DNA of 64,000 nucleotides from Ganoderma boninense (lineage: Eukaryota; Basidiomycota; Agaricomycetes; Polyporales; Polyporaceae). The stretch covers positions 3,560,089 to 3,624,088 of the forward strand of contig CM035308.1 in assembly GCA_002900995.3 (NCBI GenBank), written 5' to 3'. Made by a program: the position numbers and the translations under genes. Shown one piece after another: positions 1 to 20,384 of this stretch. Each line of letters starts with the position of its first letter. Position 1 is the first letter of the stretch. A model generated the notes under the pieces. That model did not search any database and was not told where the DNA came from. It saw only the letters and a list, made by a program, of their open reading frames with translations.

Positions 1-389
1 GAGGTATATCATGTACACGTACTCAAAGGGGCTGTCTTGTCCCACCACGGGCATCCGAGAGCCGGAAGGGATCAGGGAGACGTGGTGCCTCTCGCCACAC
101 TTGCGGCGCACAGTCAGCCGCAGGCATGCGTGAGGGCCCCAGTCCTGCCATGGGACCGGCGCTGGTGGTGCGGGCACGACAGATTCCGAGTCAAAACGCA
201 TTCTGTAGACCGCTGCATCGATCTGAGACTGGAGCGTGGAGTAGGGTATGAGCAGGTGGGAGGTGTATTCGTCTCGGAGGTGTGCGCCTCGGATGTGGTA
301 CGTGATGACGATCATGGATTGCAACGGGTCGGCATGGAAGTGGCCTTCTGGTCCTGATAGATCTGAGCCAGTGATATCGGCTGGATCAA
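1..389 (-). pseudogene. F-box family gene, C-terminal piece (third fragment, runs off window)
   Basis: Read on the minus strand, this stretch encodes a peptide containing HADPLQSMIVITYHIRG and, further on, WGPHACLRL and SGSRMPV. It aligns with the C-terminal part of the F-box paralog at 58.0-60.0 kb (RADPSLSMVVLTYKVWG, WGAQTCLRL, FGSRIPV). It is the downstream part of the gene whose other pieces lie at 2772-3678 and 19842-20384. When the 392-2769 element and one TA copy are removed, its reading frame joins the middle piece without a shift, but a TAG codon lies just upstream of the joint, so the gene was probably already dead or died soon after. The gene continues beyond the left edge. F-box proteins recruit targets to SCF ubiquitin ligases; the target here is unknown. 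Confidence 0.75.
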
Positions 390-391
390 TA

Positions 392-485
392 TATTTGACA
401 GTGTTAGTTATAACAAATGCTGTTTTTATATACTCAATGCTTATTGACGGGTGCTCAAATATTTGGTGCGGCGGGCGGTCCCCTG
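392..485 (+). repeat. Foldback element, left arm outer part (terminal inverted repeat)
   Basis: Reverse complement of 2676-2769. Joined with 1682-1954 it makes the complete left arm. Confidence 0.85.
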
Positions 486-1679
486 CATCAGGAATCTGTC
501 CGACCTACTTAATGGCCCTGAAATCACTTATCCAGCCTTGTTCAGTGATCCCCAGTGGATTCCAGGTGATCTGGAAAGTCCTTGATAATTAGGTTCACTT
601 TCTGGCCCAGTGATCGCTCCAGTGAATTCCAGTGGTAACAAGTGATATCCATTTGCAAATACTAATGATACGCCTACGCTACCAGGCCACATCGTACGAG
701 CCGAAGCGCATACTACTCACCCAGAACCAGACCCCTCCATCCTGCACATCCTCGCACTCCCCCGAGACACCCATCTGTCCCAATCCATGCCGCCCGCAGC
801 CATCGGAGTCCCGAGCACCCGCAGTTCAAACAGGTGTGTCTCGGAGTCGTAATGGCTGCACTTACGATTAGACCGATGATTACAACAAGGTAGCACCGGA
901 GCATACCTTTCTCTCGTGAGAGGTCTGTGCACTGGCGGCTGTGGGACTCGCGCTGTGTAAGTAGTCCCACAGCAGGGCGAGTTCTAAATTTGACGTGTCA
1001 GCCGCTACCAGAATGGGATTCTACTCACAGTACGTCTATCTCCATCCAGCCACGATGTCGTGCCCTCAAACGTACAAACGAGCTCGACAAATGAGTACTT
1101 ACTGATGGCCTATCTAGCTGACGATGAGGGAGAACGCAGGTAGCATGCCTTAGACTTCAGACGCATCTGGACATTTGGCGATGTACGCACCTTATCGTGG
1201 AAGCCGCTGCCGCCGGCACACAATCCCTGGTATCAGGCAGAGTGCGAGCGAGGAAACTGAGGGAAAGCGAGACCAGACTGACCATATGACAGCAGGGGCG
1301 AGGAAGAAGGCATCTGTGCCGTGAATTTGAGGAGCCCGAGAAGGCAGCGAGGTGGATAGGATGGGATGATGGAGGAGATATCGAAGGAGGGACCTGATGC
1401 GAGCTGACGCGTCGTTGGAGACCTCATGTGGAAACTGCCGGGGGTGTTTAGGGCAGGGTATGCCGGTCTTGAAGGAGGAAATCGGAGGCCAGCTGTCACA
1501 GGTTGTCGTGTGCCTTACATCGTGTGGTGCATTTTTGATGCCAATCAAGCTGACAGCTGAATGATGGGCACAGTGGATTTCAGACGATTCCAGTGATTAA
1601 GCTGATTCCAGTTGATCTCAGTGCCATCAAGGCGTTCAGTAGATTTAAGTCCAAATAAGTACCAGATGGATTCCTGATG
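486..1679. mobile_element. CATCAGG-ended non-autonomous element inserted in the foldback arm
   Basis: Begins CATCAGGAATC and ends GATTCCTGATG, an 11-bp perfect terminal inverted repeat, flanked by TG at 484-485 and 1680-1681. Its removal restores the continuous foldback arm seen at 2403-2769, which gives direct proof of the boundaries. Subterminal regions carry repeated CCAGTG-type motifs on both sides. The CATCAGG end is shared with the Plavaka element at 5610-13926, so it may be a non-autonomous relative mobilised by Plavaka transposase (inference). No convincing open reading frame. Confidence 0.78.
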
Positions 1680-1681
1680 TG

Positions 1682-1954
1682 GCGAGAACCAGATAAATAT
1701 TCAAGCTCAGGCGTGAATCCAATATTCAGGGTGAGGTTCAAATATTTGAACCGGATAAAAAGGGCATTAATGGGGATTGAACCCACACACACACGGCTTT
1801 GTGAAGGATGTGAGCGATGTTCTGACTGGGCCATAAGGCTGATACATGGGTACAAATTAATATTATTATGTCACGTCTTTTCAGCGCTTGTTCTACCATA
1901 CTTGGTCACCTTCTACTCAACGCCGTCATGTCCAGCATTCCTGGGAAATATTCC
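1682..1954 (+). repeat. Foldback element, left arm inner part
   Basis: Near-perfect reverse complement of about 2403-2675; includes mismatches of the CG versus TG kind. Confidence 0.85.
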
Positions 1955-2402
1955 CTACTATTCCCTGCAGGTAGCTTGTCCAGGTTCTACTGACACAACC
2001 TTTGACCATATTACATCCATGTTCACTGTATATCTAATAATGACAGTAGCTGGTTCTGGCTCAAATTGGTGGCAGGTGCATACTACTAGTACCCCCTGTT
2101 ACCACACATGCCAATGCTGCTCTTTCCCCTCAGTAGAGTTTCAGAGATATGTACCACCTATAGAGTAGCATCTGGTACAATATCTTTCATCTTTGTATGT
2201 ATTTGATGATGCCAATTCCCTTTTTCAAAGGCATTTTAAAATATTCCACTATGCACTGGCACAGTCACTGGCCTGGATTTAAGGTACCTGTACAAGTTGT
2301 ACTAGTAATAACTACTGGATATATTTAGGTCGGAGTCTACAACCTTTTAGTTTAGTTATAACAAAGATTTTATTCGTATTAAATAATGGATGATAGGAGG
2401 AC

Positions 2403-2769
2403 GGAATATTTCCCAGAAATGCTGGACATGACGGCATTGAGTAGAAGGTGACCAAGTATGGTAGGACAAGCGCTGAAAAGACGTGACATAATAATATTAA
2501 TTTGTACCCATGTATCAGCCTTATGGCCCAGTCAGAACATCACTCACATCCTTCACAAAGCCGTGTGTGTGTGGGTTCAATCCCCATTAATGCCCTTTTT
2601 ATCCGGTTCAAATATTTGAACCTCACCCTGAATATTGGATTCACGCCTGAGCTTGAATATTTATCTGGTACTCGCCAGGGGACCGCCCGCCGCACCAAAT
2701 ATTTGAGCACCCGTCAATAAGCATTGAGTATATAAAAACAGCATTTGTTATAACTAACACTGTCAAATA
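2403..2769 (-). repeat. Foldback element, uninterrupted right arm
   Basis: The undisturbed 367-bp arm. It is the empty-site reference that shows where 486-1679 inserted in the opposite arm. Confidence 0.85.
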
Positions 2770-2771
2770 TA

Positions 2772-3678
2772 TTTACCTAACCAATACTGGTGTCTGAGCT
2801 GCACATCATATGGTGAAGGACCACACACTCTCTGTCATGCAGTTGGGGCTCAGGAATGCGTAGCGTACATAGCTTGGAAGTGGACGGGAAAAGACGGTAT
2901 ATGTCGAGACGCCGTGGTGAGCCAGAATCCGGCTTATACATGACGAGCATGTAGTCGCCCCATGGGATAGCGCCCACTTGCTGAGTCCCAACGTACAGTC
3001 GCTGAATAATCGTACAATGAGGGAAATCGAACAGTCAACGTGGGAGAAACCAGGTGGAAGAAAGGGGGGTTGCGTACCATTACCGTCTGTCCGGACCTCC
3101 AGTCGAATACTTCGATGGAGTGATTTACTTCAATGGAGTGATTGCCAGGCTGAACTTCGTTGGGTTCGTCGGACTGTGTGAGTAGCCCCACAATTACATA
3201 GCGTCCGCCAGCGTTTAACGACCGTACGTTGAATTTTCTCGTCGGATTGCTACCAGGTGGGAGAGCAACTTGCACGCAAGGTTCCGTTGCATCTGGATGA
3301 TGAGTCCAAGTGGTTTCCGAGACGCTCAACGACAAGAAATGGACCTCGATAAGCCTGGGTATTGGACAGTACAAAGTCAGCGCAAGCTATTCGCCAAACA
3401 TGTAAGCAGAAGGAGACTGACCACGTGTTCTCCTCCAACCTGACCAGCTCGACAGTGATGAGGAGATCTTGGGCATGATCTATGGCCCAGATCCTGATCC
3501 GTCGCCTCCGGTCCTCGGGCGTCCCGATAGGCATGAGCCAGCGGCGAGACTTGATTCCTGCTTGTGCGGAGCCATGGGTGAAGACTGAAAGAAAGAATTT
3601 GTAGGTGGCAAAATCGCCGTAAACCGCCGATGTGGACCCGTCTCCACGCATCAAACACATCAGCGAAAGCGCAACTTA
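2772..3678 (-). pseudogene. F-box family gene, middle piece (second fragment)
   Basis: The minus strand encodes FLSVFTHGSAQAGIKS, TPEDRRRRIRIWAIDHAQDLL, GRYVIVGLLTQ and FDWRSGQTVMV, and near its end LDIYRLFPSTSKLCTLRI. These match in order FLSLVTHGSAQAGIQS, APEDPRRRFSWWAIDDAQDLL, LCNWRTGQIIS and LDVYSISPSIHPLCTLQL of the F-box paralog at 58.0-60.0 kb. Several introns separate the parts. The upstream end stops abruptly at the 8-bp duplication shared with 19834-19841, where exon 2 continues 16 kb away. The downstream end stops at the foldback element. A TAG lies in frame beside that junction. Confidence 0.8.
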
Positions 3679-3686
3679 CCTGCAAT

Positions 3687-5267
3687 GCAATGCAGGACGC
3701 TACGCAACTGTATAGATGACTGTAAGAATTCGCAGGCTCCGGCGCCATCTGGCAGGGCCTTACAGTGAATGGCAGCATACGACTGTAATCTGTAGGGCCT
3801 TATCGCACACGATACACTACGCTAGCTGCATGCAGTCTGTTCACCGGACACGCTCCACAGTCCTAGGGACCTGCAAGGCGTCCGTCGGATACGGCTATAT
3901 ATTGCATGGTTCTACAATCCTCCACAGGATTCCTGCGCCAAATCCTGATCCCCTAATAATTTCTTCGTAGACGAGACCTAGCACCTGTTATCAGATATAT
4001 CAAGCTCCTAATAAACCGGTTTCCAGTCACCCAGTACTCAATACGGGCAGTCGATACGCCAACAGCTCATGTCTCAGAATCTCTCGCCCGGGCCCTTACC
4101 CCGAGTCCTCAGTGGACCATTGTAGAGCCCCCAATACCCCACCATCAATGCCCCAACGAGTTGTAATCCCATGCCAAACTGCTTGAATCTGCCTCAAATT
4201 GGCAGGAGAACTGATGTTTGGTGTGACGTCATCGTTGTCTCTGAACCGACATTATAGGTGCGGGTTGGCGCGACTTCACCCCAACTTCGCGCCTTGCCCT
4301 CTGTCCACCATCTCCCCTCTGCTTTCCATCTCCTCTCGGTCCTCGGTGGACTTGCTGCCCCTAATACCTGCTGAACCCCGCCCACTCGGATCCTAGCAGC
4401 CTCAGGTGTGTACCACATGTCTGCTCGATCGTCAGATATGTAGCTCCGTTAGACATCGAGGTGAGTTTTCGAATTATATTTCTAGTTCTATGCAATTTTG
4501 GATCGCGGTATAGGATACAGGTGCGTACTCACTGGCGCTGGTGTTTAGGTGGCGTGTAGTCGCCCTTGAGGGGTTCAGGTAGGTCTGCCGAACTTGCACC
4601 AGAGCTCAACGTAAGTGTTTCCAGTCAATTCGCAGCATTAGTGCGTGCAGAGGATCCAAAGGTGCGTCGTCGTCGTACGTTGGTGTCCCAAGGCATTCAA
4701 GTGATGCAAAAGCATTCTCCGGCAATCAGGTACGTTCTGCACAGTCCCATTCATGCATTCAGGCGAGCACCCTGTGAGTTGCCGCGCTTCTCCCCTCTTG
4801 ATTTTGCGGCATTCAGGGAACCTCGTTCCTCAGAAGGTGCGTTGGCAGCCACCCATTTTCACTCCCTGTCAGTGTTTGCCTCTCCACACCCCTCCTCAGG
4901 CTATTGCCGTAGCTCAGCATGTACCGACCCAACATATACTTATCATTGTGTATATACGCTGTAGTCCCTTCGACGAAATATATATTTTTTCTCAGTCACA
5001 ATTATCCTTTCTGTAGGATTGTAGTGGGAATTTCGGACGACGTCCATCATTCTTCATAGGAATCCGTAGGTCCCTACAGTGCTCCAGTGGGCCAATTACA
5101 GGCCCCTACCGTCTCCCACAAGAAATGCTACAGAGCCTTGCAAGGCTCTACAATCTGTCGGTGGTCAAACTGCAACGATCTATAGCCATTCGCGTAGCAT
5201 ACTACAGGAAGTTATAGAGCGCTATGACATTCTATAGGAGTCCGTGAGGTACTTGCGATGCCCTACC
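3687..5267. mobile_element. hAT-like non-autonomous element, left part (right 32 bp at 19802-19833)
   Basis: The F-box gene is interrupted between two copies of CCTGCAAT (3679-3686 and 19834-19841); an 8-bp target duplication is the mark of the hAT superfamily. Collapsing the two copies recreates an exon end with a standard CAG|GTAAGT donor, which supports the boundaries. The ends show only weak inverted similarity (a TGCAG core about 4 bp inside each end), so the superfamily call is tentative. The body is rich in short CTGTAG / CTACAG motifs in both orientations and has no open reading frame I can support. The copia element at 5268-19796 landed 32 bp from its right end. Confidence 0.6.
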
Positions 5268-5351
5268 TATGAGAGCGTGTAGTCGGGCGGCTGTAACGGA
5301 CGGACAAAAGGCCTCAGACGGTGCGCTCGGGGAACGAGTGCAAGACTGATA
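5268..5351 (-). repeat. Copia 3' LTR, distal fragment cut off by the nested insertion
   Basis: Matches 19326-19409 of the intact LTR with one difference. Together with 14174-14560 it totals 471 bp, equal to the other LTR. The TA at 5350-5351 is the target duplication of the inserted element. Confidence 0.9.
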
Positions 5352-5609
5352 CATCAGGAAACCTGGGATAGCGCTGAGAGCACTGAGGGCCACTGAGGCA
5401 GTACCCCCAGTAGCGCTCAGTGGCGGTCAGTACAGGGGCCGTCAGTAGTGGCTGTGTAAGCACACTCGAGCAACGAGACCGCGACCTTCTCTTGCTCTCT
5501 TGCCTCCACCTCCTATCTCTGCTGGATGCTATGTGATTGCAATGCTTGGACGACCAATACGGGAGCTAATCCAAACCGCAAAACGTTCATGGGGCCCCTC
5601 CAACAGGTA

Positions 5610-5638
5610 CATCAGGAAAAACCCCAACTTCTAAATAG
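5610..5638 (+). repeat. Plavaka left terminal inverted repeat
   Basis: Pairs with 13898-13926 over about 29 bp with a few mismatches and one extra C in the right copy's C run. Confidence 0.85.
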
Positions 5639-6260
5639 TGATATAGAGTCCTTTTTACTTCTATTCAGCACATATTAGCAGAGTGGACTAATTAGGACTA
5701 AAAAGTTTCCCCCCCTTTGAAAGTAGTAGGAACAATCACTTATTGAAGACAAGTAGCTAGAAATAGCCAAGTACAGCGCTTTCTTGCATTGAAAGTAGCA
5801 CCAAATAAACTCTTTTAACATCCAGCTCTAGCCATTCTGCTCACTATTGCACAGCAAGACACTCCAAGTTTACACACATTTTCACCCATATTGAGGCTAT
5901 AAGTAGCAATTATCAAAGATTTATAGCATTCAGACTCATTACATTGGGCTGTAGTATAATGTGTACTATGTACGTGGTATACGGAAGCAAAGCAACTACT
6001 GGAATACTAGAATGCAGGTATATCAAACACCGCCATCACTTATAGAGAACACACTGCCACCATAGCGACTGTGACAGCGGCTAGCACAAGGCATAGCCAC
6101 CACCACGCTGAGGTAACCACAAATTGTACCTGCTGGAACCCCGTGGCATGTGAGAAAGACATGATGCACATGGAAGATATCGAAAAGGGGGCTAAGCGTG
6201 GAGAAGACAGACCGCTGCTAAAGGCGATGCAGCTGGCTGCAAGAGAAGGCTGGCGCTGGA
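5639..6260. other. Plavaka left subterminal non-coding region
   Basis: AT-richer than its surroundings, with AAGTAG / GTAGCA-like short motifs repeated on both strands, as expected for transposase-binding subterminal DNA. No gene seen. Confidence 0.4.
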
Positions 6261-6809
6261 GGAGGATGACGCGCATCCTATCTCTCAGTCCAGCTATGCT
6301 TCGTCTCTTCCGGACTGGGTGTCGCAGCCGGGCGAAAAAAGGAGACGCGCGTGGAGGGTGACAGCCACCGGAGGTGGGTTGATGGGCTGAGCGTTAGACG
6401 TGATCACCGCGCGAAACGACAAAAGAAGTGCAAGAGTAGGCGTGCGCCAGGCGACGAAGGGATTATGAACATGAAGGGAGACGGCAGAGGCAGGATGGGG
6501 CTGGGTGAGAGAGAAGATCGCCGTGCGAGACAACACAGCAGCCACGAGAAGGCTAGCGCTGAGGGAGGATGACGCGCATCCTATCTCTCAGTCCAGCTAT
6601 GCTTGGACCCTTCCGGAACACGTAATGCGGCCAGGTGCGGGAAAGGAGATACATGCGAAGGGAGACGGCGGAGGCAGGTCGATAGGGCCGGGCGTGGGAG
6701 AAGACCGCCGCACGGGAAGATCGCCACGCGAGACAACGCAGTGGCTGAGAGAGAAGGCTAGCGCTGGGAGGAGGATGACGCGCATCCTATCTCTCAGTCC
6801 AGCTATGCT
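6261..6809. repeat. Dispersed tandem repeat, three copies, inside Plavaka
   Basis: A 40-bp core starting GGAGGATGACGCGCATCC occurs at 6261-6300, 6564-6603 and 6770-6809. Flanking parts also recur (AGAAGATCGCC, GAGACAAC, GAAGGCTAGCGCT), so the true unit is about 200-300 bp and copies have diverged. It lies just past the stop of the DUF6532 gene. Function unknown; it could be part of that gene's 3' region or of the element's end structure. Confidence 0.75.
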
Positions 6810-6921
6810 GGGGCCGGGCACGAGACATCGGTATAGAACAGATAGGGGGAGTGAGGAGGTTGGGAATGTCCGAATTGTACAGTCGTTGGCGGGGGTAGCC
6901 GTGGTGCATCCGGGAGGCAGT

Positions 6922-9900
6922 TCACTCCTCATCCGCGGAGAAGTCAGCGAAGGCGTCATCGTCGAAGTCTGCGACGCCAGGTGCAGCTCCCCTGCACAAC
7001 ATTAAGCACAGCCGTTATGGAGAATGACAGAAACTTACGTGAGACGCTGATAAAGCCCACTCATGAGAGTGTGGTACTTGTTCGGTTGCTTGCTCTTCAT
7101 CTTCGAGAGGAACGAGATGCAGTGCTTGAAGACTGGGGCATATATGTTGGCCTCGAACTTTCCTGCGCGGTACTTAGTTGGACGATAGTCATCCAGGGAG
7201 GCGTAAACCTAAAGAGAAATCAGCAATGCGCAAATAGGCCTACAAGGATGACGTACAGCCGTTGCCACCAGCGCAAGCATGGACGCAGGAATCTCCTTCT
7301 CAAGGGGCCTCTCAAGAAGGCTGGATTCAAAACAGTCCATGACCTTGTAGCCGAAGCTCCGTGGATTATCGTAGAATGCGGCGCGAAGGACAGATTCGAA
7401 GATGGGTAAAGTGAAAGCGAGCTTGCCTTGGGATTGCACGCTGAGTGCCTAAACAATGACAGTTAGTCAGTTGCTGGCTCTACGCTGTTTGGAGAGGAGG
7501 ATAGTGGCTCGGATGACACCGTTAGGTCTGAATCAGCGGACACGGCAGGACTGAACAGCAAGAGCAGAAGATCATCGCTGTCCGCTGACATGCCCGCAAT
7601 CCGCATGCAGAGCTCCTCGTCCGCGCCAAGCCCCGCGGCCTGAAACATGCGCGCGTAGGACTCGAATGCGTCCGGCACGTCCTTTCTCATGCCGGCGATG
7701 TGCTTCGCGGTTGGCACGAAGCCGTCCTCAAACGCCGCAGGCGAGCACAAGCTGTCCTCCACTACCCATTCGAATACCATGGCGACGAGGGACTACAGAA
7801 GAAAGCGTACCTTGTAGTCATGCGGATATATGAAAGCCAAGTTCCTCTGCAGCCACTCGATCTTCTCCGAACACCCAGGCTGCAGACCGTAGACTCCAGC
7901 GACAGCTCCATCCGTGATCTTCTTGACAAGCCCCCGCAAAGAGAACGCACGCTGCGCGGGCTACAGCGAAGTCAGATAAGAGGCGTGATGCCGTGATTCG
8001 CACAATAGGACTTACAAGGGATGCAAACTTCCTCCAGTAATCCTCCTGGTTGTCGTCCTTGAGTCGCTTGGCCATGTCGCGGTAACCCACGTCTTGCGCG
8101 CACCGTATGAGCGCGCTCCAAGCTTGATCCTGTAAGTCCTTAATGCCGTCGGGAAATGCACACTTGAGAAGTACATTCTTCTTCACCACGAAGATTGCAA
8201 GACGTGCGATGCGACGGACACGTGGGGCTTGCTCTCCAAGGTTCGGGCGCCCCTTCTTGTCGCATCGCAGGTTGATATTGGTGTCCTGGTCGTCAATTTC
8301 CTCGTCATCCTCGTCGTCGCTGTCGGTCTACAGAGGAGGGCTCAGCAATGTATTGAGGATAAGTCGAAGTAATGCGACTCACATGCAGATCAGCCCGACG
8401 ATCAGCCCGACGCTTCTTCGGAGGCATAGCAGCCTCATCATCAATATCGGCCCCCTTCTCACTGTTCGCCCGCTTGATGAACCTCAACAAGAGCTTGAGG
8501 GAGACGAATAACACCAGAACTCACCTCGTCATGCTTGCGCTTTGAACTGGAGCTCACGCGCCGGTCATCCGACACGTGCAACTTGGGGTCAGCCAGCCTG
8601 TTCGCCTTCGAAGAACAAGTCGTAAATAGAACGTTTGGCCAGAGCTCCTACACACGCACCTTTTGAGCTGCTACCTTCAGCTTCTCCTTCAATCCCTCCT
8701 TCTCCTTCCCCTTGTTTGTGTTTGCCTTCGCCCTTGCCTTCGCCCTCTCCCTCTCCTTCTCCTTTTCCTTCTGCCGAGCGCGAGCTCTTTCGTCCTCGCT
8801 ATCGATTTCGTCCGGCCGTCCTTCTCCACTGCGACCCTTCGCAGCCGTCTTCTCCTTCCTCTTTGCGAGTTGTCGGTCGCCGCGGCGATTCTCGTCGGCG
8901 TCTTCGACGTCGGAGGTGGGCTTCGTCTTTTTCCTCGCAGAGGGCCGGAGCTGTGAGGCGTGGCATGAGGAGAGCGTGAAATGGAAAAGGAATTGAACAT
9001 TGCACACCGGCAGGGACTTCTCGCTCCCGTTGTCTGAATCCGAGTCGCACCTCGTGCGCTTCGACGCGTGCGGCTTCAGGTGGCGGGGACTGGCGTCTGA
9101 CTGGGGGGCATCGTTGAGGTCTTCGGGGTCGTCGCCGCCGGCCCAGTACAAGGCCTGTGAGGGAGGGGAGGGCATCAGGAGACATAGAGAGGGGGATTGG
9201 CAGGAGGGACAGCGGAGTGGTGCGAAAGGGATCATGATGGTGGGTGGAGAGAAGACGGCCGGCGCTCACCTCAGCGTCGAATGAGATAGCGCCCTCCTCG
9301 TCCTGGTCGTCTTCCTCCTCTTCGTCTTCCTCGGACGGCTCCCTGGACGACGCCTCGTCTTCATCCTCATCGCTCTTGTTCCTCGCTCGACTCCTCTTTG
9401 CTTTCTTGATGCTGCTGCGTGACTCCACCTCTGACGCCTTCGATTCCCTGCTCGCGGACTTCGGCTTATCCTCCCTGATGGTCCTTCCCCGGCTGGCTGG
9501 TGAGGCAGCCTTCGGTAAGTCGTCCGTGTCGTCGTCTGAAGTGTTGAGCTGAAGAGACTGGGGCGCGGGATAGTCGTCGGCGGCAGCCACGACTTTTTTC
9601 GAGCCGTTCGTTGGGGTTTTCTTCGGGCCTTTCTTCGGGGGGACTTTGTCTGGGACCCAGGTATGAACGGTATGATTGCATTGCATTGTCAGCGTAAACT
9701 ACTCACCTTTTTTATCAGCTTTCGAGCTTTTGGGTATAAGCTCCTCCCATTCTGAGGGGAATCAGCAACATCAGTGATTGACGAAGGGATGACGTACTTC
9801 TATGTGCGCGCAACTTCGTGGACCGGGGAGCTGTGGTTGTACGTAAATTCGTGCTGCTTCTGCAGTCAGGTATCGATACTCACCAAGTGTTTCCTCTTCA

Positions 9901-10001
9901 GCGTCGTCGAGATCCTGTCCCGAACGCTCGGAGGTCTGCTCAGACTCAGCGTCGGACTTACCTGAAGCCCGTGTAGCGGGCTTCCGAGACGCAGGCGGCA
10001 T
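6922..10001 (-). CDS. DUF6532-domain protein, probable Plavaka cargo gene
   Basis: Multi-exon minus-strand gene starting with MPPASRKPATRASGKSD. The N-terminal half is disordered, alternating strongly acidic stretches (EEDEEEEDDQDEEG) with basic ones (KEKEKERERAKARAKA), suggesting a nuclear protein. The C-terminal half carries conserved blocks in order: NVLLKCAFPDGIKDLQDQAW, IRCAQDVGYRDMAKRLKDD, NLAFIYPHDYKVRF, GKLAFTLPIFESVLRAAFYD, VYASLDDYRPTKYRAGKF. I recognise this layout as the DUF6532 family, common in Agaricomycete genomes and of unknown function. The last exon ends ADFDDDAFADFSADEE. It is divergent from the Plavaka transposase and lies inside the terminal repeats, so it travels with the element. 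Exon joins were inferred by eye; I did not prove that every exon is intact. Confidence 0.72.
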
Positions 10002-10324: not shown

Positions 10325-13300
10325 ATGACTTCTAAATCTATCAAACGTGCTGCGAAACGCACTCATCTCTGTGCTGGTTGTGATCGCAAGTTCACAGCGT
10401 CCGGGCGGAAACGCCATCTCCGGCAGACCACCCAACCAAAATGTATCGCCGTGCGCGAATCCGAACAAAGCAACCTCCAAACCTCGGAGGACACGGAGAC
10501 CTCATCCACGACAACCCCATCCTCACCTGTGCGTTCCCCCGATCCTGACGATCCCGAACTCCCTCCCCAACCATTCATGGGCGACTTCTACGGTGACTAC
10601 GCTGCGGAGGACTTCGACGACTACGTGGAGTACCATGGAGAAGACGGGTCGGAAGATCTTGAAGATGATCTTGGATCTGGAGACGAGGAGGCGGGGTCGG
10701 GCGATGGGGAGGAAGAGGCGGAAGAGGCGGAGGAAGACGAGGATGATGACGACGAAGATGCAGACAACTTGGAGGAAGAACAAGGGTGGGAGCCTCCTCC
10801 GCCCGATCTTCTCAACGTTGACACCGATGCCGATGCCGATGCCGATCCCGGCGACGATGACCAGCGACGGTCCGCATCTGCTCAGTGACGCGCCCACGAG
10901 CACCTCCGAACGCGGACGTTTGTCGCGCGCTTCCCTGGTCCACATGCTGGTTCCCCCATCACTCAAGAGCGAGAGTCGACGTTCTACGAGCAGTACGACG
11001 CCGCCAATGACTCGGACGACAATGACTACTACCCATTCAAGTCGCGTCTTGACTGGAAGATTGCCAGATGGGCGAAGATGCGAGGTCCTGGATCCACCGC
11101 TGTGTCAGAGCTGCTGGACATTGATGAGGTACGCCTGTCATTCTCTCTCGCCTTCATGAATGCTAATCCTGGTTGGTGCAGCTTGTGGAACTCCTCGGTC
11201 TTTCATTCAAGAACTCCCGGGAACTGAACGCGATCATCGACGACAAGCTCGCATCCGGCCGACCTCGGTTTATTCGAAGAGAGATTGTTGTCGCAGGGGA
11301 GAGCTTCGAGGTGTTTTATCGTGATGTTATCCAGTGCGTCCGGGCCCTGTATGGCGACCCCGAGTTCGCTGGGATCCTGGTCTTTGCGCCTGAACGCCAC
11401 TATGCCGACCCCGATCATACGGTTCGGGTTTACTTTGATATGCACACCGGACGGTGGTGGTGGGACACTCAGGTATGTTATCCTTTGGATCGTCAAGTGT
11501 ATGCTCTAATAGATGAATACCCAATAGAAGGAGCTCGAGAAGCGTAAGCCTGGGGCGACGATCATCCCGATCATCATTTCCTCGGACAAGACCCAGCTCA
11601 CGGTCTTTGGCAGCAAGACCGCCTACCCTGTGTACCTCACCATCGGCAATCTCCCAAAGGACGTGCGTCGAAAGCCCTCTCGTCGCGGGCAAATCTTGCT
11701 CGCATATCTCCCTTCCTCCCGCCTTGAGCACATCACGAACAAGGCTGCTCGCCGTCGTGCTGTCGCCAACGTGTTTCACCACTGCCTCTCTACAATCCTG
11801 AAGCCTCTCATCAAGGCTGGCATATTTGGGATCACAGTGACAAGCGGAGATGGCGTAGTACGACGTGGCCATCCAATCTTCGCTATGTACATAGGTGATT
11901 ATCCTGAACAGCTCCTCGTCACCTGCTGCAAGAATACGACCTGCCCCAAGTGCGACATCGATCCCTCGGATATTGGAGATACAACAGATCCCAATCGACC
12001 TCTTCGCAATCTCAACAATATCCTCGCTGCCCTTGCCAAGGTCGGAAGCCCTCCAGCGGAGTTTCGCCGTGCGTGCCATGAGGCAGGAATCAAGCCTGTG
12101 GTTCACCCTTTCTGGGTGAAGCTCCCCTTCGTTCACATCTTCCGTTCAATCACACCAGACATTCTTCATCAGTTGTACCAAGGTGTTGTCCGCCATATGG
12201 TGTCTTGGTTGAAAGCAGCCTTCAGCCCAGAAGAACTCGACGCTCGTTGTCGTCGACTTCCTCCGAACCAGCAGCTACGTGCATTCCCAAAGGGAATTAC
12301 AACTCTGCAGAAGGTTACCGGCAAGGAGCATGCAGATATTTGCCGATTTCTTCTTGGGTTAGTAGTGGGACTTCCTCTCCGCTCTGGCCTATCTCCCACC
12401 CGCCTTGTACGTGCTGTTCGTGCAATTCTTGACTTTCTGTACCTGGCACAATATCCAGCCCACACCTCTTCTACTCTCAAGCTTCTTCACAATGCCCTGC
12501 GCCGCTTTCATCAAAACAAGGCTATCTTTGTTGACCTTGATATTCGGGACAACTGGCATATTCCAAAGCTCCATTCCCTCGACCACTACCTCATTTCCAT
12601 CAAGATGTTTGGGACAACAGACAATTATGACACCCAGTATACGGAACGGCTTCATATCGACTTTGCCAAAGACGCCTATCGTGCAACTAACCACAGAGAT
12701 GAATTTCCACAAATGACACTTTGGCTTGAACGTCGTGAAAAGGTCCTTCGCCATGAGGCATACATTCAGTGGCGGCTCCACCGCAGAGCTTCTCGCAATG
12801 CTTATTCAAGTACCACTGGGCCTCAATCTTCCACACCTTCCCTTCTTCCATCTTCATCTGGTCTCCCATCCCTTCCACCTTCTACAAAGCCTGCAACACA
12901 AATGAAGTTGTCCAAGTGGCCAAGCGTAAAGGCTGTTCGACTTCTACATATTGCTAGTCTCTATGGCGCCAACCAGTTTCAGGACGCATTAGCACGCTTT
13001 GTCATCAAATACCGGGATTCTATGCTTACAGACACTCAAATCAAGCATGCAGCACAACACCTTATCTTTCGATTCAGTTCTGTGCCTGTTTGGCACAAGA
13101 TCAAGCTCAGTCTTGAAGATGCACAGCACCTCGGTGTTATGGAAGCAATACATGATACAGTTCATGCTCGTCCAAAACGCCAAAATCAACGAGGTCAAAC
13201 TGTTCCTGCCCGCTTTGATACAGTTCTTGTCAACACTGGGACTGGAGGTTTTTCAGGAGTAGAAGGTGTGCCTAATCTATTGCTTATTTACACTCAGTTT

Positions 13301-13688
13301 ACTAAATGATGCTAATGGCTCATTATTAGGATATCGTGTTGGTCGTATACGGCTCATATTCAAAATCCCAGAGCGGGCACATAAAGAGTTGTTTCCAGAT
13401 GTGATTATACCAGGACATCTAGCATATGTTGAGTGGTTTAGTCCTTTTACACAGCCAGATAGCATTCATGGCATGTATAAAATTTCTCCAAGTTATATAG
13501 GCAACCAAGATCGGACTCCTCGTGTTGATATCATTGAAGTGAAGTCAATCCGACGTAGTTGCCATCTTATTCCTGTATGTAATGCTACTATTTCTCGTGA
13601 TTGGACTAGTAGTACAGTTTTAGATATTAGTAAGAACTTTTATGTAAACAACTTTAGTGACTTACATATGTATATGACTTTATGCTAG
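10325..13688 (+). pseudogene. Plavaka transposase with one premature stop
   Basis: Exons as read: 10325-11128, 11182-11472, 11528-13265, 13330-13688. The N terminus has a C2H2 finger (CAGCDRKFTASGRKRHL), then a long acidic linker, then the Plavaka core: ERESTFYEQYD, YYPFKSRLDWKIARWAK, LVELLGLSFKNSRELNAI, VFAPERHYAD, RWWWDTQ, IIPIIISSDKTQLT, AYPVYLTIGNLPKDVRRK, ASGDGV-like TSGDGVVRRGHPIF, DILHQLYQGVVRHM and YTERLHIDFAKDAYR. These belong to a DDE-type (Tnp2/CACTA-related) transposase of about 900-1000 residues. A TGA at 10886-10888 (codon 188) falls between the acidic linker and the core, in a frame that is otherwise open on both sides with no plausible intron around it; CGA to TGA at a CpG would explain it. 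Confidence 0.8.
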
Positions 13689-13897
13689 TATCTGGTGGGC
13701 AATGCATACTTTTTTCTTAGTAGTGAAATTGGGCTGCAACAATAAATACTTATACTAGCTCTTGGCAAACCTGCTCTTCCAAAATGTACAAATGAGGGCC
13801 AAAAAAGTCTAATCTCAACCTTTTAATGCTAATACAATTTAGCAATACAAAAAAGCAACTAGTAGTATGAACTGTATGCTAATTATTACCTTAAGAG

Positions 13898-13926
13898 CTA
13901 ATTAGAATTGGGGGTTTTTCCTGATG
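13898..13926 (-). repeat. Plavaka right terminal inverted repeat
   Basis: Inverted copy of 5610-5638. The 200 bp between the transposase stop and this repeat is AT-rich and non-coding. Confidence 0.85.
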
Positions 13927-14173
13927 TATGCAATGCCAGAAGTCGCATGGACCGGTTTTCGAGATACACGTTGCGTCCGTATAAGATGGTGACAATATTG
14001 GTGAGTAAATGCTTTTCAAAGTATTGTATTGGGTACATATGCATACCGTAAAGGTGTTGTCTTGCGTCGTTATGCTTTGGAAAGTGAAGGACACATGTTT
14101 TAATCGGGCATGGGTCCCCCAGGCGCCCGTCAGTACTCTCAGCGCCTCAGCGTTTTGCAGAAGTTCTGATGTA

Positions 14174-14560
14174 TATACCTGTAATGGACGGACAAAAGGC
14201 TAGCTAATTGTCAGTACGTACAGTAAGGACACAAAGTGAATAGTGTTGCTCACCCTCAGACGGTGCGCTCGGGGAACGAGTGCAAGACTGAGGGTGCGCG
14301 CTTTCGGAGGCATCAAGTATAAGTGAAAACGGCGAGGAGGGATCTAGACTGACCAATGACAAATACCTAGGATCCCGACATACGAATAGAAACAGAAAAC
14401 AAAGAGACACTGGCAGTAACGCCATCAGGAAAGCTGTCCGAAGGTAAGACCTGCCTACAAAGGACACGGGCGCGTAAAGACATACGAGACGAAATGAAAT
14501 AACGCCGGAAACACGGAAACACGACCTGCGACTACTCACGTGGATTGTCGCGTTCCAACA
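14174..14560 (-). repeat. Copia 3' LTR, proximal fragment
   Basis: Identical by eye to 19410-19796. The rest of this LTR is at 5268-5351, beyond the nested transposons. On the coding strand it starts TGTTGGAACGCG. Confidence 0.92.
14200..14253 (-). other. Intron-like 54-bp segment inside the copia LTR (3' copy)
   Basis: On the minus strand it begins GTGAGC, has TACTGAC as a possible branch site, and ends CTAG. A second tandem copy of the surrounding LTR sequence (5' LTR 19351-19407, also at 5293-5349) lacks exactly this segment. Its counterpart in the 5' LTR is 19436-19489. Confidence 0.6.
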
Positions 14561-14573
14561 CTCCCCCTCAATC
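14561..14573 (-). promoter_or_regulatory. Copia polypurine tract
   Basis: Minus-strand GATTGAGGGGGAG directly before the TGTTGG start of the 3' LTR, and directly after the pol stop codon. Primes plus-strand DNA synthesis in LTR retrotransposons. Confidence 0.8.
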
Positions 14574-17500
14574 CTACTGGAGTCCAAGGGCAGTGGCGAA
14601 ATGCTTGACCTTGGGAGACGGGAGGGCTTTTGTGAGGACGTCGGCGACCTGGTCCTCGGTAGGACAATAGACGAGGTGGATCTTCTTGTCCTCGATGATC
14701 CAGCGGATGAAGTGGAACCGTATGTCGATGTGCTTGGTCCGGGCGTGGTACTGATTGTCGCGAGCGAGAGCGATAGCAGACAGGTTGTCGGAAAGCAAGG
14801 GAGTGGATGAGAGGAGAGGAGCGAAGACTTGCCCGATAAGGGAACGCAGCCACAGCGCCTCCTTGGCGGCGTGGGTAACCGCGACGTACTCGGACTCGGT
14901 CGTCGAGAGCGAGATGAGCTCTTGCTTCTTCGAGCTCCATGACACGGCTCCCCCATCTATGAGGAACGCGTACCCCGAGATCGCCTTCTGGTCCTCGTGC
15001 ATTGATCCGTCTGCGTCCGTGTACCCGACCAGGTCGACCGTCTTCGCGCCGTACGTAAGCTTCAAGAGCTTGGTACCTGCAAGATAACGAAAAACGCGCT
15101 TGACAGCGTCCCAGTGAGCCGGACCAGGGTTCTCGGAGAAGCGGGAGAGGATGGAGACAGCGTAGGTGATGTCGGGATGAGTGCCAAGGGACGCGTACAT
15201 GAGGGATCCGACGGCTTCACGGTACGGGATGTCACACATGCGCGCGATCTCGGCGGTTGTCTGCGGAGACTGGGCAGAGGTAAGTAGGTTGTGCGGATCC
15301 ATCGGTGTGGAGATGGGCTTGAGTTCGTTGAAACCATAGCGGCGGAGGATCGACTCGATGTATGACGTCTGCGACAGGGACAGCGTCCGGGCCGCGCGAT
15401 CGCGTTCAACCGCGAAACCCAAGATCCAGTGGATCTCGCCCTCGTCCGAGATCTCAAAAACCTCACGGAGTTTAGCCTTAACCTCTAGGATCAGGAATCA
15501 GGACCATGCTCGACGCCGCCACAGTCAAATCATCAACATGGCATACGATCACAATGAGATCCGTACCCTCGGCCCGGAAGAAGACGGCCTGGTCGACGTC
15601 GCACTGCGACATGCGCAAGAGCTCCTCGAGCACTCGGCGCAGCTTCTTGTGCCAGTGCCTAGCACTCTGGCGGAGGCCGTAGAGCGGACGCAGGAGGCGG
15701 AGGGCGAGGGACTTGTCGTCGGTGAGCTTCACGCCCGGCGGCAGGGACATGAAGATAACCTCGTTCTCCTCGAACTCCCCATTCAGGTACGCACTCTTCA
15801 CGTCGAGCTGATGAATTTCTAGGTCATTGCGAGCTGCGAAGGCGAGCGTCGTGCGGATGGAGGCGGTTTTTGCGACGGGGGCATAGGTATCGAAAAAATC
15901 GACACCCGGCACCTGCGAGAAACCACGGGCCACAAGACGAGCACGAAGGCGAGTAACATTCCCAGCAGTGTCCTTCTTCGCATGAAAGACCCAACGGCAG
16001 CTGACGACGTTTGCTCCAGGCGGCAGTGCCTCTAGAACCCATGTGCCGTGCGCCTCAAGAGCGCGCAGCTCCTCCAGCATCGCTTCCTCCCAGCGCGGCC
16101 ACTCGGGACGACGGCGTGCCTCCTCCAGGCTACGCGGGTCAAGACCCTCCGTGTCCGCCATCTGCGTGGCCATCGCGGCACCACTGATCTCCTCCTCGAG
16201 CTCGGGTGCAGCCTTCGGCGGATCTCCTTTCAGGGCAGCAGCGCGGACACCTCTGGGCAGCCGACGGTCTGCAGCCTTGCCCTCTAGGATGTCGAGCACC
16301 TTACGGGATGGCACCCGCTTACGAGGCTGGCGGGGTGGCTCTGGCTGAGCAGGCGGCAGATCGACGACTGTTGGTGGTGGTTCGGCAGGTGAAGGAACCG
16401 GTTGCTCGACTGGGGCAGGCTCGGACGGCTCGACGGACGACGACTCGGACTTGTCATCGGCCTCTTGCTCCCCCTCAAGTATTGCATCGTCGTCGACAAC
16501 GATCGGAGGAGGCGCGTCTGCGGAGAACGTGACATTCCGCTCGACCGTCACAGTCCCAGTTGCCCCGCGGTCTGGCCAGAAAACCCGGTGGCCCTTGCTC
16601 TGGTGGTCGTATCCGACTCAGCGCGCAGGTTGCGCACGGACACCGACCTTGCCCGAGGCCGTGTCGTGGACCCAAACCTGGCAGCCCCACTCCGGGATCC
16701 CGCTGACGTCTGGCACTTTGCCCGTGGCGGCCTCGTAAGGCGTGCGACCGCCAAGTGCCTTCGTGGACGTCCTATTCTTCAAGTAGACGGCGTGCATGAC
16801 AGCCTCGCCCCACAAGAAGCGCGGAAGCCCAGACGCGATCAACATCGCGCGGACCTTCTCCATCACGGTGCGGTTGAGGCGCTCGGATACGCCAGCTTCT
16901 CCGTGTGTGTCATGCACGGAGAGCTTCGACTGGATGCCGTGCTCCTCAAGGAACGAGATGAACTCGTCGCTCAAGTACTCGCCACCACGGTCCGTGTTCA
17001 GCGCCTTGACATCGGCATCGTGCTGATTCTTCAACCAGGCGACGAAACCACGGAACGACTCGAAAGCCTCGGATTTCTGGCGAAGAAGGTAGAGCGTGGT
17101 GAAACGGGTGGCATCGTCCGTGAAACTGATGTAGTATTTGCGTCCTCCTAGGCTGATGACGCGCGATGGACCCCAGACGTCCGAGTGGACCTCCTCTCCT
17201 AAAGAGGTCGAGCGCTCTCCCTCGCGCTCCTTTGGCACAGGCCAGCGAGTGGCCTTGGCTCGGACACATGCCTCGCAAGTGAGAGGCTCCTCGGACTCGA
17301 CGATCTTGACACTAGTTACGAAGCCCTTGGCGACGAGCTCTCGTATAGCGCGTGGTGCGATGTGCCCAAGACGGCGATGCAGCTCCATGATCATGAGTTG
17401 CTCGTCTGCGACGGTGACTTGTGCAGACCCTCCCCCGGTACGTTCTCGTTCTACGATGTACAGGCCACGCAACTTCGGGATGCGCCCGACAGTTGCACCG

Positions 17501-19209
17501 TTGTGATCTGTGATCACACACTGACCACTGGCGAATGTGGTAGTGAAACCCGCATCGTCGATTCGACCGACGGAGATGAGGTTGTACCTGAGCTCAGGTG
17601 CATAGAGGACTCGGTGTAGGCGGATGTTGGAGCTGGGAGCGGGGTCGTTAGGGACGGGCAGCAACATGTCCCCAACACCAGTGGCCTGGAAAGGCTGCTG
17701 GTTGGTGGCGGTGAGGTCCTGCGATGGGATCTCTCGGAAGGTGAGGAAGTCCTCCCGATACGGCGACATATGATGAGTCGCGCCAGAGTTGTATAGGTCA
17801 ACCGGTGGGCGGGGCTCGACAGCGGCAGTAGCAGCGAGCGGCTCGAGCGCGGCAGCGGCACTCGGAGCTGAAGGAGCAGGAACATCCTCGCATCCTTCAC
17901 CAAACACCCGGTTCAACCATTCGGCGATGTTCGACAGGCGGTCCAGGAGCGGCACGGGCTCCGGCGCAGGCGCAGGCATGGCATCGGCATCGGTCTCGGA
18001 GGTGGGCAACGACGAGGCCGAGACGGTCTGGAGGTCTGGAAGAGAGTCGACATCTCCCTCCGACGAGTCAGACACGGTTTGCAGTGACGGCATGGAGCCA
18101 TCGGAATCTGACGCTCTTGTCAGATCAGTGTAGTCGGACATGGCACCGTCTGACCACGGATCATCGACGCCCGACGAGGCAGAGTCGGAGTCGGATTCGA
18201 CAGTAGCAGGCAAGAAAGCGGACCACGCTCCGGCGATGTCGTCAAGAGACATGGGAGCGGCAGCGGCAGCGGCATTCACTCGAGGTGCAGGCGGGTCTGG
18301 CTTCGCATTGGAGCCCTTGCCATCAGGCTTGGGACTCGGGCAGACCTCGTACCTGTGGCCCACACCGCCGCACGTCCAGCAGACGCCGACGGGCTTCTGA
18401 GGGCCCCGCTTTTCCTTCCCCTTTCCCTTCCCCTTCTTCAGTTTCTCGCTCGAGAGTACGCTCGCAGCGACGCCAGTGTCCTTCGGCTTCCCCTTCCCCT
18501 TGTCTGCCTGGCGTCGGTCCCACTCCTCGAGGGCGAGGTCCATGAGCGTTTCCGCATCAAGGACAGGCTTCACGCCACTCAAGACGGTAGAGGACGACCC
18601 ACTCGACGCAGCAGCTGGGGACGAGGAGGTCGACAGCGCTTGCATGCGAGCGGTGAGCTTGGCGGTGGCGGAGAGTTGGGAGATGAAGGTGGAGAGCTCG
18701 GAGGGGACAAAGTTGATGATGAGGGAGGCGTACTCAGCGTCACTGATGTCCACATCTGCGTTCAACAGCTCCTCGTAGGCCACACGGATGCGATCGAACT
18801 CGGAACGAAGGTCGGCACCGGACTTGTACCGCATGTTCAAGAACGCCGTGTGGAGGTTGGCTCGGAGGAGGATTGACTTGTCGGTGAACTCCTTGACGAT
18901 CGCGGCCCAGATCGCAGCTGTCGTACCCTTCCGATGGTGCTTGGTAAAGGTAACGTCGGGTAGCTTCTGCGAAAGAAGGTAGAGGGCGAGGTTCTCGGTC
19001 TTCTCCCAGGCAGCAATGGCGGCGATCTCGTCCTTCGTCGGCTTTGTAGCATCGGCGGGGATCGGGCGAGGAGAGCTCCCGTCGAAGTGAGACCAGGCAT
19101 CCTTCTGACGCACAGCGATCGTGAAACGGCACTGGAACGTAAGCCAGTTCTTGCCGGTAGGATCGAGCTTGTCGAGAGCGGCGGAGAAATCAGAGATCGT
19201 AGTCGACAT
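14574..19209 (-). pseudogene. Copia gag-pol polyprotein gene, three lesions
   Basis: A single long frame from MSTTISDFSAALDKLDPTGK. Gag region of about 430 residues with zinc knuckle CWTCGGVGHRYEVC; protease site YNSGATHHM, where the usual catalytic Asp is Asn; integrase with LHRRLGH...CEAC zinc motif and core FTDDATRF / LNTDRGGEYLS; reverse transcriptase CRWVFHAKKD, LDVKSAYLNGEF, CHVDDLTVAA; RNase H YTDADGSMHEDQKAISGY and STTESEYVAV. A TGA at 16618-16620 interrupts the frame where a Trp (RWVGYD) is normal in the family. A tandem 7-bp repeat (ATCAGGA at 15490-15496 and 15497-15503) shifts frame right after the reverse transcriptase active site. The stop codon overlaps the polypurine tract border. 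Not functional as it stands. Confidence 0.9.
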
Positions 19210-19310
19210 AGCGGGTAGATGAGGGTGCGATTGAAACGAGCGGTTGCTGGGATATAAGAGAAGTGGGGAAAAGCTTTTGCGCGATGAGTCTTGCTAGTTA
19301 AGGCCTTCTC

Positions 19311-19325
19311 GCAGGGCTCATAACC
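19311..19325 (-). promoter_or_regulatory. Copia primer binding site (initiator tRNA-Met anticodon half)
   Basis: Directly adjoins the LTR end with no spacer. The plus strand GCAGGGCTCATAACC equals the anticodon stem-loop of initiator tRNA-Met (loop CUCAUAA), so the element is primed from an internal half-tRNA cut in the anticodon loop, as known for Drosophila copia, rather than from a tRNA 3' end. Confidence 0.8.
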
Positions 19326-19796
19326 TATGAGAGCGTGTAGTCGGGCGGCTGTAACGGACGGACAAAAGGCCTCAGACGGTGCGCTCGGGGAATGAGTGCA
19401 AGACTGATATATACCTGTAATGGACGGACAAAAGGCTAGCTAATTGTCAGTACGTACAGTAAGGACACAAAGTGAATAGTGTTGCTCACCCTCAGACGGT
19501 GCGCTCGGGGAACGAGTGCAAGACTGAGGGTGCGCGCTTTCGGAGGCATCAAGTATAAGTGAAAACGGCGAGGAGGGATCTAGACTGACCAATGACAAAT
19601 ACCTAGGATCCCGACATACGAATAGAAACAGAAAACAAAGAGACACTGGCAGTAACGCCATCAGGAAAGCTGTCCGAAGGTAAGACCTGCCTACAAAGGA
19701 CACGGGCGCGTAAAGACATACGAGACGAAATGAAATAACGCCGGAAACACGGAAACACGACCTGCGACTACTCACGTGGATTGTCGCGTTCCAACA
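19326..19796 (-). repeat. Copia 5' LTR, intact, 471 bp
   Basis: Coding strand begins TGTTGGAACGCG at 19796 and ends CTCTCATA at 19326. It contains a tandem duplication: 19351-19407 and 19416-about 19545 share sequence, the second with the extra 54 bp at 19436-19489. It is the empty-site reference for the insertion in the other LTR. Confidence 0.9.
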
Positions 19797-19801
19797 CTAC
19801 C

Positions 19802-19833
19802 AACATTGTAGGCAATTACTAAAGCTGCAGGTC
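19802..19833. mobile_element. hAT-like element, right 32 bp
   Basis: Remainder of the element at 3687-5267 after the copia insertion; followed by the second CCTGCAAT copy at 19834-19841. Confidence 0.55.
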
Positions 19834-19841
19834 CCTGCAAT

Positions 19842-20384
19842 CCCGCTGCCTAGTTTGCTGATGCAGTTCCACTCGAGGTTACGCAGTTGACGGCCGTACT
19901 CCGGATGCGAGTCGAGGGTCTCAGGGTCGAAGACACCGTTTCTAAAGTTAGATGCGTACTGCCGGAGGCGTTCCAGCCGCTCAGAGATAGACACAGTGCT
20001 GGAAGACCCGTCGATCATGCCGTTCTGCGCGAGCTCGATCCTGTACTGGAGGTATATCTCGGAACCGATGAGGTCGGCAAAGTGGCGACAGACCTGAACA
20101 GCGCTCAGCGTTCAGCGGCCAATCACACACACTCGTACAGCAAAGCGAAAGTCACGTACCCTGATGCATCTTGCGATGCCTTGCACATGAAGGTGCGAGA
20201 GCGTAAGAACGAGAAGTTCTGCAGGTAGATCGCAAACTCCGCAACGACGATGAGTCCTCAAATGGGGAGTGCGGCTAGCTTTTATAGGACCCATATTGTA
20301 GGCGGGATGGCGAACGAAAGAAATGCGCGCTACTGGCTGGGACGAGAGGCGGAATGGTTGAGGAGACAGGACGACGGGTGGCAC
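19842..20384 (-). pseudogene. F-box family gene, N-terminal exons (first fragment)
   Basis: Exon 1 carries an F-box core (DLPAELLVLTLSHLHVQGI then ARCIR), an intron with GTACGT donor follows, and exon 2 encodes VCRHFADLIGSEIYLQYRIE, ELAQNGMIDGSSSTVSISER and LRQYASNFRNGVFDPETLD. It matches the paralog at 58.0 kb (LIRSDLYLQYLIELAQTGMI, LRQYSSNCRGGIFNHES). A closer start is possible at the Met of MGPIKASRTPHLR. The gene breaks off at the hAT-like element; the continuation is at 3678-2772. F-box proteins bind Skp1 through this motif and present substrates for ubiquitination. Confidence 0.78.

What the first reader, a model, noticed from the sequence alone, without database searches (positions are those of the whole stretch)
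1..20384. Five-layer nested transposon stack splitting one F-box gene, each layer with a readable TSD
F-box gene pieces at 20384-19842, 3678-2772 and 389-1 are colinear with the paralog at 58 kb. Between them: hAT-like element (TSD CCTGCAAT), in it a copia element (TSD CTACC), in its 3' LTR a CATCAG-ended element (TA), in that a Plavaka transposon (TA). A separate insertion (392-2769, TA) carries yet another element (486-1679, TG). Removing each layer regenerates a sensible host sequence: a CAG|GTAAGT donor, a 471-bp LTR equal to its partner, a continuous foldback arm. The order of events is therefore fixed.
Basis: partly seen in the sequence, partly recalled or inferred. Interest (0 to 1): 0.85.

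Follow-up and report, generated by a model that had tools for sequence, protein, structure and literature searches.

The report
Nested transposons splitting a fungal F-box gene
One F-box gene of a bracket-fungus-like genome has been cut apart by six transposon insertions, four of them stacked inside one another; the stack is real and of an ordinary kind, but two of its boundaries were misread, and its innermost transposon carries a DUF6532 gene of unknown function that in this genome usually travels with this kind of transposon.

Summary
The nested stack is real. Each of the six insertions has its target-site duplication (TSD) and an independent uninterrupted copy; support is strong for five, weaker for Plavaka inside the 0.5-kb element. 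But two boundaries, one transposon class and one proof are wrong. The "hAT element with TSD CCTGCAAT" is a non-autonomous PlavakaB-type element, 3658-19863, ends CATCAG..CTGATG, TSD CA; CCTGCAAT lies inside it in other copies, so the "regenerated CAG|GTAAGT donor" is transposon sequence. The foldback is 369-2792 with TSD TCTGAGC, not 392-2769 with TA. With these corrections the F-box frame closes, and a 94%-identical paralog aligns without a gap at both junctions. Four of six insertions have PlavakaB ends. The order is only partly fixed: copia preceded the element in its LTR, but composite moves are possible elsewhere. The innermost Plavaka carries a DUF6532 gene head-to-head with its transposase. 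In this genome 21 of 25 DUF6532 clusters lie within 10 kb of a Plavaka cluster, each with a divergent partner. DUF6532 may thus be a second Plavaka gene; in the library searched, the one paper naming it does not link the two.

The parts
1..20384 (-). F-box gene interrupted by the insertions; host pieces 1-361(368), 2793(2800)-3657 and 19866-20384; the 3' end lies beyond the window, where the fetched stretch reads N
   Evidence: Pfam F-box-like 7.7e-8 in its first exons; Ganoderma proteins P0001 and P0004 match the pieces colinearly and cross both corrected junctions in single stretches; reading frame closes at the outer junction
3658..19863 (.). Outer non-autonomous PlavakaB-type element, net 1672 bp, TSD CA (3656-3657 / 19864-19865)
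   Evidence: ends and TSD in other copies; coordinates; empty site in paralog L063
5268..19796 (-). copia retrotransposon, net 5707 bp, LTRs 471 bp, TSD CTACC (5263-5267 / 19797-19801)
   Evidence: LTR pair 470/471; gag, integrase and RVT_2 domains in copia order; uninterrupted outer copies L005-L007 at the site
5352..14171 (.). Non-autonomous CATCAG..CTGATG element in the copia LTR, net 501 bp, TSD TA (5350-5351 / 14172-14173)
   Evidence: partner LTR is its empty site; full-length uninterrupted relative L081 of 491 bp with TSD TCG
5610..13926 (+). Autonomous-type PlavakaB transposon, 8317 bp, TSD TA (5608-5609 / 13927-13928)
   Evidence: 31-nt terminal inverted repeats at 90%; Plavaka Pfam domain; its left 541 bp match only this place in the genome
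11173..13306 (+). Plavaka transposase (PF18759, DUF6830), at least two of its exons; an upstream exon probably starts about 10325 (inferred)
   Evidence: Pfam 7e-25 and 1e-69
7038..10012 (-). DUF6532 (PF20149) gene, divergent from the transposase; domain exons about 8282-7995, 7960-7796, 7415-7038; the 5' part is inferred from open frames
   Evidence: Pfam; tblastn with Polyporales homologs
7469..7792 (-). Segment like a MIF4G/MA3 (eIF4G-like) host protein, probably captured, lying in an intron position of the DUF6532 gene
   Evidence: 71% identity over 108 residues to P0019 of Ganoderma sinense
369..2792 (.). Foldback element with long inverted arms, net 1228 bp, TSD TCTGAGC (362-368 / 2793-2799)
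486..1679 (.). Non-autonomous CATCAGG..CCTGATG element inside a foldback arm, 1194 bp, TSD TG (484-485 / 1680-1681)
   Evidence: arm continuous across it and uninterrupted in other foldback copies; 15 further full-length matches among 38; TSDs of 4 other copies

Best explanation
A tandemly duplicated F-box gene was inactivated by two separate lines of insertion. (a) A 1.7-kb non-autonomous PlavakaB-type DNA transposon landed in an exon (TSD CA). A copia retrotransposon integrated in it (TSD CTACC). A 0.5-kb non-autonomous PlavakaB-type element landed in the copia's 3' LTR (TSD TA), and an 8.3-kb autonomous-type PlavakaB element sits in that (TSD TA). (b) A 1.2-kb foldback element landed further downstream in the gene (TSD TCTGAGC) and carries another PlavakaB-type element (TSD TG). 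Shown: structures, TSDs, empty sites. Inferred: the PlavakaB-type elements were cut and pasted by PlavakaB transposases acting in trans on CATCA..TGATG ends, copia by its reverse transcriptase and integrase, the foldback by an unidentified transposase. Also inferred: the DUF6532 protein is a second Plavaka protein, perhaps a DNA-binding or complex-forming partner of the transposase.
For: LTR halves 470/471. Joining the host flanks with one TSD copy closes the frame (..LRNLEWN|CLMRGDG..) and aligns with paralog L063 (93.7% in blastn; 2158 of 2363 columns identical, 90 of them gap columns) with both junctions inside ungapped blocks. Ganoderma proteins P0001 and P0004 cross both junctions. Outer family: 7 of 8 other copies with both ends readable have 2-bp TSDs. 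486-family: 4 of 4 other copies examined have 2- or 3-bp TSDs. Foldback: 3 exact and 1 six-of-seven 7-bp TSD in the 4 other copies examined. Layer 3: uninterrupted 491-bp relative with TSD TCG. Plavaka transposase in the innermost element. PlavakaB defined in print by CATCA..TGATG ends and 2-3 bp TSDs (PMC12730594, passages seen). DUF6532: 21 of 25 gene clusters within 10 kb of a Plavaka cluster, against at most 2.7% of the genome.
Against: One of the 8 outer-family copies (L005) has no matching 2-bp TSD. Around the Plavaka site the relative L081 aligns poorly (325 of 505 columns identical overall), and the second copy fetched, L080, matches only 229 bases. 4 of 25 DUF6532 clusters have no Plavaka cluster within 10 kb, and 9 of the 29 strongest Plavaka places have no DUF6532 within 10 kb. 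The association was tested in one genome only, on capped lists. The outer element could not be tied to one autonomous partner: its left 113 bp or so match a sequence 7 kb from a Plavaka transposase on C13, but no matching right end was found there. Paralog L063 carries one stop in the last segment compared, where the interrupted copy is open.
Confidence: 0.93

Rival explanations
1. The outer element is a hAT transposon with an 8-bp TSD CCTGCAAT that landed at an exon-intron border.
For: CCTGCAAT stands at both ends at 3679-3686 and 19834-19841, and the joined sequence looks like a splice donor.
Against: Copies at other places carry the same octamer at both ends and the same sequence outside it. 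The F-box frame and the paralog fit the CA boundary without a gap.
Confidence: 0.01
2. Some layers moved as ready-made composites (outer element already carrying copia, or the 0.5-kb element already carrying Plavaka), so the nesting depth overstates the number of separate events at this gene.
For: Cut-and-paste leaves no donor; the left end of the innermost Plavaka matches one place, and the copia LTR only one other, 86-89% identical, place in the genome.
Against: None of the 8 other outer copies with both ends in the fetched loci carries copia; they measure 1669-1730 bp. The relative L081 is uninterrupted. Composites elsewhere were not searched for beyond this.
Confidence: 0.15
3. The join is an assembly artefact.
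For: The assembly has 74 contigs; an N run lies at 54627-54726 and the stretch before the window reads N.
Against: Every join is bounded by an exact TSD and family-specific ends, and no N lies in the stack.
Confidence: 0.02
4. The DUF6532-Plavaka link is coincidence of repeat-rich regions rather than a shared element.
For: Transposons cluster; 4 of 25 DUF6532 clusters have no Plavaka cluster within 10 kb.
Against: In the window both genes lie inside one pair of terminal repeats. The divergent orientation holds in 20 of 21 nearest pairs, and the 21st has a divergent partner 3.7 kb away (places).
Confidence: 0.1

Closest known systems
PlavakaB DNA transposons (CMCT clade; PMC12730594)
   Same: CATCA..TGATG ends, 2-3 bp TSDs, PF18759 transposase in the autonomous copy
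   Different: No TET/JBP domain in the frames scanned (not a full search); a DUF6532 gene is carried; three of the four elements are non-autonomous
Ty1/copia LTR retrotransposons
   Same: Two near-identical LTRs, 5-bp TSD, gag then integrase then RVT_2 order
   Different: pol is split over several open frames; LTR reads TG..TA rather than TG..CA; split by a transposon in its 3' LTR
Foldback / long-TIR elements; hAT7 (7-bp TSD hAT, PMC12730594)
   Same: Long inverted arms; 7-bp TSD; one end reads CAGTG
   Different: No transposase seen in the frame scanned; the other end reads CACCAGT; superfamily not assignable
Nested transposon clusters of plants and fungi (recalled)
   Same: Later elements inside earlier ones, ordered by nesting
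   Different: Nothing in kind; here four of six insertions share one end type

Membership tests
PlavakaB | termini CATCA..TGATG | tested here: met
   3658-19863, 5352-14171, 5610-13926, 486-1679
PlavakaB | 2 or 3 bp TSD | tested here: met
   CA, TA, TA, TG in the window; other copies 7 of 8, 4 of 4, and the one of two fetched layer-3 relatives that has both ends
PlavakaB | PF18759 transposase in the autonomous member | tested here: met
   5610-13926; the other three are taken as members by ends and TSD alone
PlavakaB | placement in the PlavakaB branch of the transposase tree | not tested
   no tree was built
hAT (outer element) | 8-bp TSD | tested here: not met
   CCTGCAAT is internal to other copies
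hAT (outer element) | hAT transposase | tested here: inconclusive
   the one open frame scanned, 132 aa, has no Pfam family
Ty1/copia | integrase before reverse transcriptase, two LTRs, 5-bp TSD | tested here: met
hAT7 (foldback element) | 7-bp TSD | tested here: met
   window and 3 of 4 other copies exact, the fourth with 1 mismatch
hAT7 (foldback element) | hAT transposase | not tested
   no autonomous partner was looked for; only one 163-aa frame was scanned, no family
F-box gene | F-box domain and homology along the gene | tested here: met
   PF12937 at 7.7e-8, 32.4 bits over a cut-off of 24.3, in the first exons; colinear pieces; the 3' end could not be read

The most novel reading that the evidence does not exclude
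DUF6532 is the second, cognate protein of a large class of PlavakaB transposons, encoded head-to-head with the transposase. Much of the DUF6532 family in polypore genomes would then be transposon cargo or machinery rather than host genes, and the copy in this window has in addition taken up a fragment of an eIF4G-like host gene.
Probability: 0.72. Interest if true: 0.5.

Novelty: new member of a known kind. Interest (0 to 1): 0.36.

Why it matters
The stack is a clean record of gene loss in an F-box cluster. It also shows how a conserved subterminal repeat can pass for a target-site duplication and even for a splice site. If the DUF6532 link holds in other species, it gives a function class to a domain now listed only as unknown, and makes Plavaka a two-gene transposon that can be tested in yeast.

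Tried and rejected
hAT with TSD CCTGCAAT: rejected. Foldback with TSD TA: rejected. Separate genes instead of one split gene: rejected. My first outer junction was off by one base and gave a broken frame; corrected and used. still used the old foldback boundary, which left a gap of about 50 bases against L063 and so exposed the error. An autonomous partner for the outer element on C13 stays unproven, as no matching right end was found near it. DUF6532 has no relative of known structure by sequence (no match for P0031; one match at E 0.08 with the alignment). Structure prediction of DUF6532 could not be run, so its fold and mechanism are guesses. No Rfam match over the gathering scores and no tRNA in the window. 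Paper searches on nested fungal transposons and F-box expansion gave nothing specific (listings only). Of the 11 papers that hold the word Plavaka I looked into passages of 4 (PMC12730594, PMC9674265, PMC8955403, PMC8290104); the others were seen as listings only.
Full report
Setting. The window is positions 3560089-3624088 of contig C5 of a 55.6-Mb genome in 74 contigs. Its F-box gene has its closest relatives in Ganoderma (P0001, 47% identity) and its DUF6532 gene in Lentinus, Ganoderma, Trametes and Fomes, so it is a polypore or close to one (inference).

The gene. The minus strand from about 20384 to beyond position 1 codes for an F-box protein (Pfam F-box-like, 7.7e-8). Two Ganoderma proteins match the three pieces in order. 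A protein search of the genome with the joined exon gave 45 matching stretches, 27 of them on C5 between 3.525 and 3.687 Mb (two of these are the split gene itself), so the gene belongs to a large local cluster. The best match, L063 at C5:3525849, some 34 kb before the window, is 95% identical in protein and runs through the first junction without a stop.

The outer element. Copies at other places show that octamer at both ends too: CCTGCAAT exactly in 6 of 8, a variant in the other two, L008 and L009. The similarity goes on to CATCAG on the left and CTGATG on the right. A ninth copy, L004, lacked a readable right end in my scan. Of the 8, 7 have a matching 2-bp TSD just outside (AG, AT, TT, GG, AT, TT, TT for L006-L012) and L005 does not. 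In the window the element is 3658-19863 with TSD CA. Taking it out with one CA closes the F-box frame. The joined gene aligns to L063 with 2158 of 2363 columns identical, 90 being gap columns; both junctions lie in ungapped blocks. So the splice donor named in the finding is part of the transposon end.

The foldback element. Arms 375-485 / 2676-2786 and 1680-1959 / 2398-2677 are 95% and 98% complementary. Against L063 the flanks stop at 368 and 2793 with a 7-base overlap. Other copies match up to the base equivalent to 2792. Their TSDs are GAAATGG, AACGAGA, CGGGAGA (exact) and CAAGTGG/CGAGTGG (6 of 7), in the 4 other copies examined; a fifth place, on C4, was not fetched. The element is therefore 369-2792 with TSD TCTGAGC. 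The element in its arm, 486-1679, has 15 further full-length matches among 38 matches in the genome. The 4 other copies examined have TSDs TG, TG, TC and CTA.

The copia and what lies in it. The split LTR equals its partner at 470 of 471 positions, so the insertion is recent (inference). The preserved site is seen in L005-L007, where GCC-CTACC-AAC is uninterrupted. Gag, pre-integrase, integrase and RVT_2 domains lie in copia order on the minus strand, over more than one frame. The LTR has only one other, diverged, place in the genome (C14, 86-89%). The 0.5-kb element in the LTR has a full-length relative, L081, of 491 bp, with TSD TCG and nothing at the Plavaka site; the alignment there is weak, 325 of 505 columns identical overall. 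The second copy fetched, L080, matches only the first 229 bases. This is the weakest of the six empty sites.

The Plavaka. 5610-13926 has 31-nt terminal repeats, a Plavaka transposase on the plus strand and a DUF6532 domain on the minus strand. Its left 541 bp match only this place in the genome. Published PlavakaB elements have CATCA..TGATG ends and 2-3 bp TSDs (PMC12730594; passages seen). That fits four of the six insertions here.

Order of events. Only part of it is fixed. An element present in one LTR alone must have come after the copia integrated, because both LTRs are copied from one template (established knowledge). The copia in the outer element, the Plavaka in the 0.5-kb element, the element in the foldback, and the two branches relative to each other could have other orders, since a transposon can move with a passenger. 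The stepwise order is the simplest reading.

State of the gene. Apart from the insertions, the three segments compared with L063 stay open. Uncorrected differences per site are 0.077 synonymous against 0.024 non-synonymous in 441 bp, 0.124 against 0.064 in 243 bp and 0.08 against 0.03 in 357 bp. A fourth segment with an 18-base gap was not counted. L063 itself has one stop in the last segment compared. The insertion is thus late compared with the duplication (inference).

DUF6532. Genome-wide there are 46 DUF6532 matches and 147 Plavaka matches (where 123 of 148 candidates were scored, so a lower bound). I merged same-strand matches less than 4 kb apart, giving 25 and 72 clusters. 21 of 25 DUF6532 clusters lie within 10 kb of a Plavaka cluster, while at most 2.7% of the genome does. 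Of the 21 nearest pairs 20 are divergent and one convergent; the convergent case has a divergent partner 3.7 kb away on its other side (places). Of the 29 strongest Plavaka places 20 have DUF6532 within 10 kb. In the text library DUF6532 and PF20149 occur in one paper. Its passage lists both DUF6532 and Plavaka among additional domains encoded by two Ganoderma species, without linking them (PMC8955403). A description under another name, or in a paper not held, would have escaped these searches. Its role is therefore a guess: a partner protein of the transposase, as the DNA-binding second protein is in Nuwa/Harbinger elements (PMC12730594 passage) and accessory proteins are in CACTA elements (recalled).

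A captured piece. Within the DUF6532 gene, at an intron position, 7792-7469 is 71% identical over 108 residues to a MIF4G protein of Ganoderma sinense whose relatives of known structure are eIF4G. Reading straight on from the preceding exon meets a stop, so it is probably spliced out (inference). Pfam finds no family in the piece itself. The donor gene in this genome was not sought.

Noticed in passing
7469-7792, minus strand: Fragment like an eIF4G-like (MIF4G) host gene inside the DUF6532 gene of the Plavaka element: a possible gene capture.
   Followed up: partly
34229-34453, plus strand: A second, weaker stretch (44% over 75 residues to the same Ganoderma protein) with a stop in it.
   Followed up: no
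5268-5351 and 19326-19796: Read on the coding strand, the copia LTRs run TG..TA instead of TG..CA, although the TSD is clear.
   Followed up: no
21109-22017 and 24361-25104, minus strand: Two glycosyl hydrolase 43 frames; the stretch at 20971-21653 is also present beside paralog L063 at 93% identity, so the duplicated unit seems larger than the F-box gene.
   Followed up: partly
54627-54726: A 100-base N run (probably a scaffold gap) with an F-box protein 3' end just beyond it at 54737-54901.
   Followed up: no
L063, 2567-2924: The closest uninterrupted paralog has one in-frame stop in this segment where the interrupted copy is open.
   Followed up: no
63353-63985, minus strand: Rot1 ER chaperone gene, an ordinary conserved fungal gene.
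   Followed up: no
L001: The 3' end of the F-box gene lies beyond the window, where the fetched stretch reads N.
   Followed up: no
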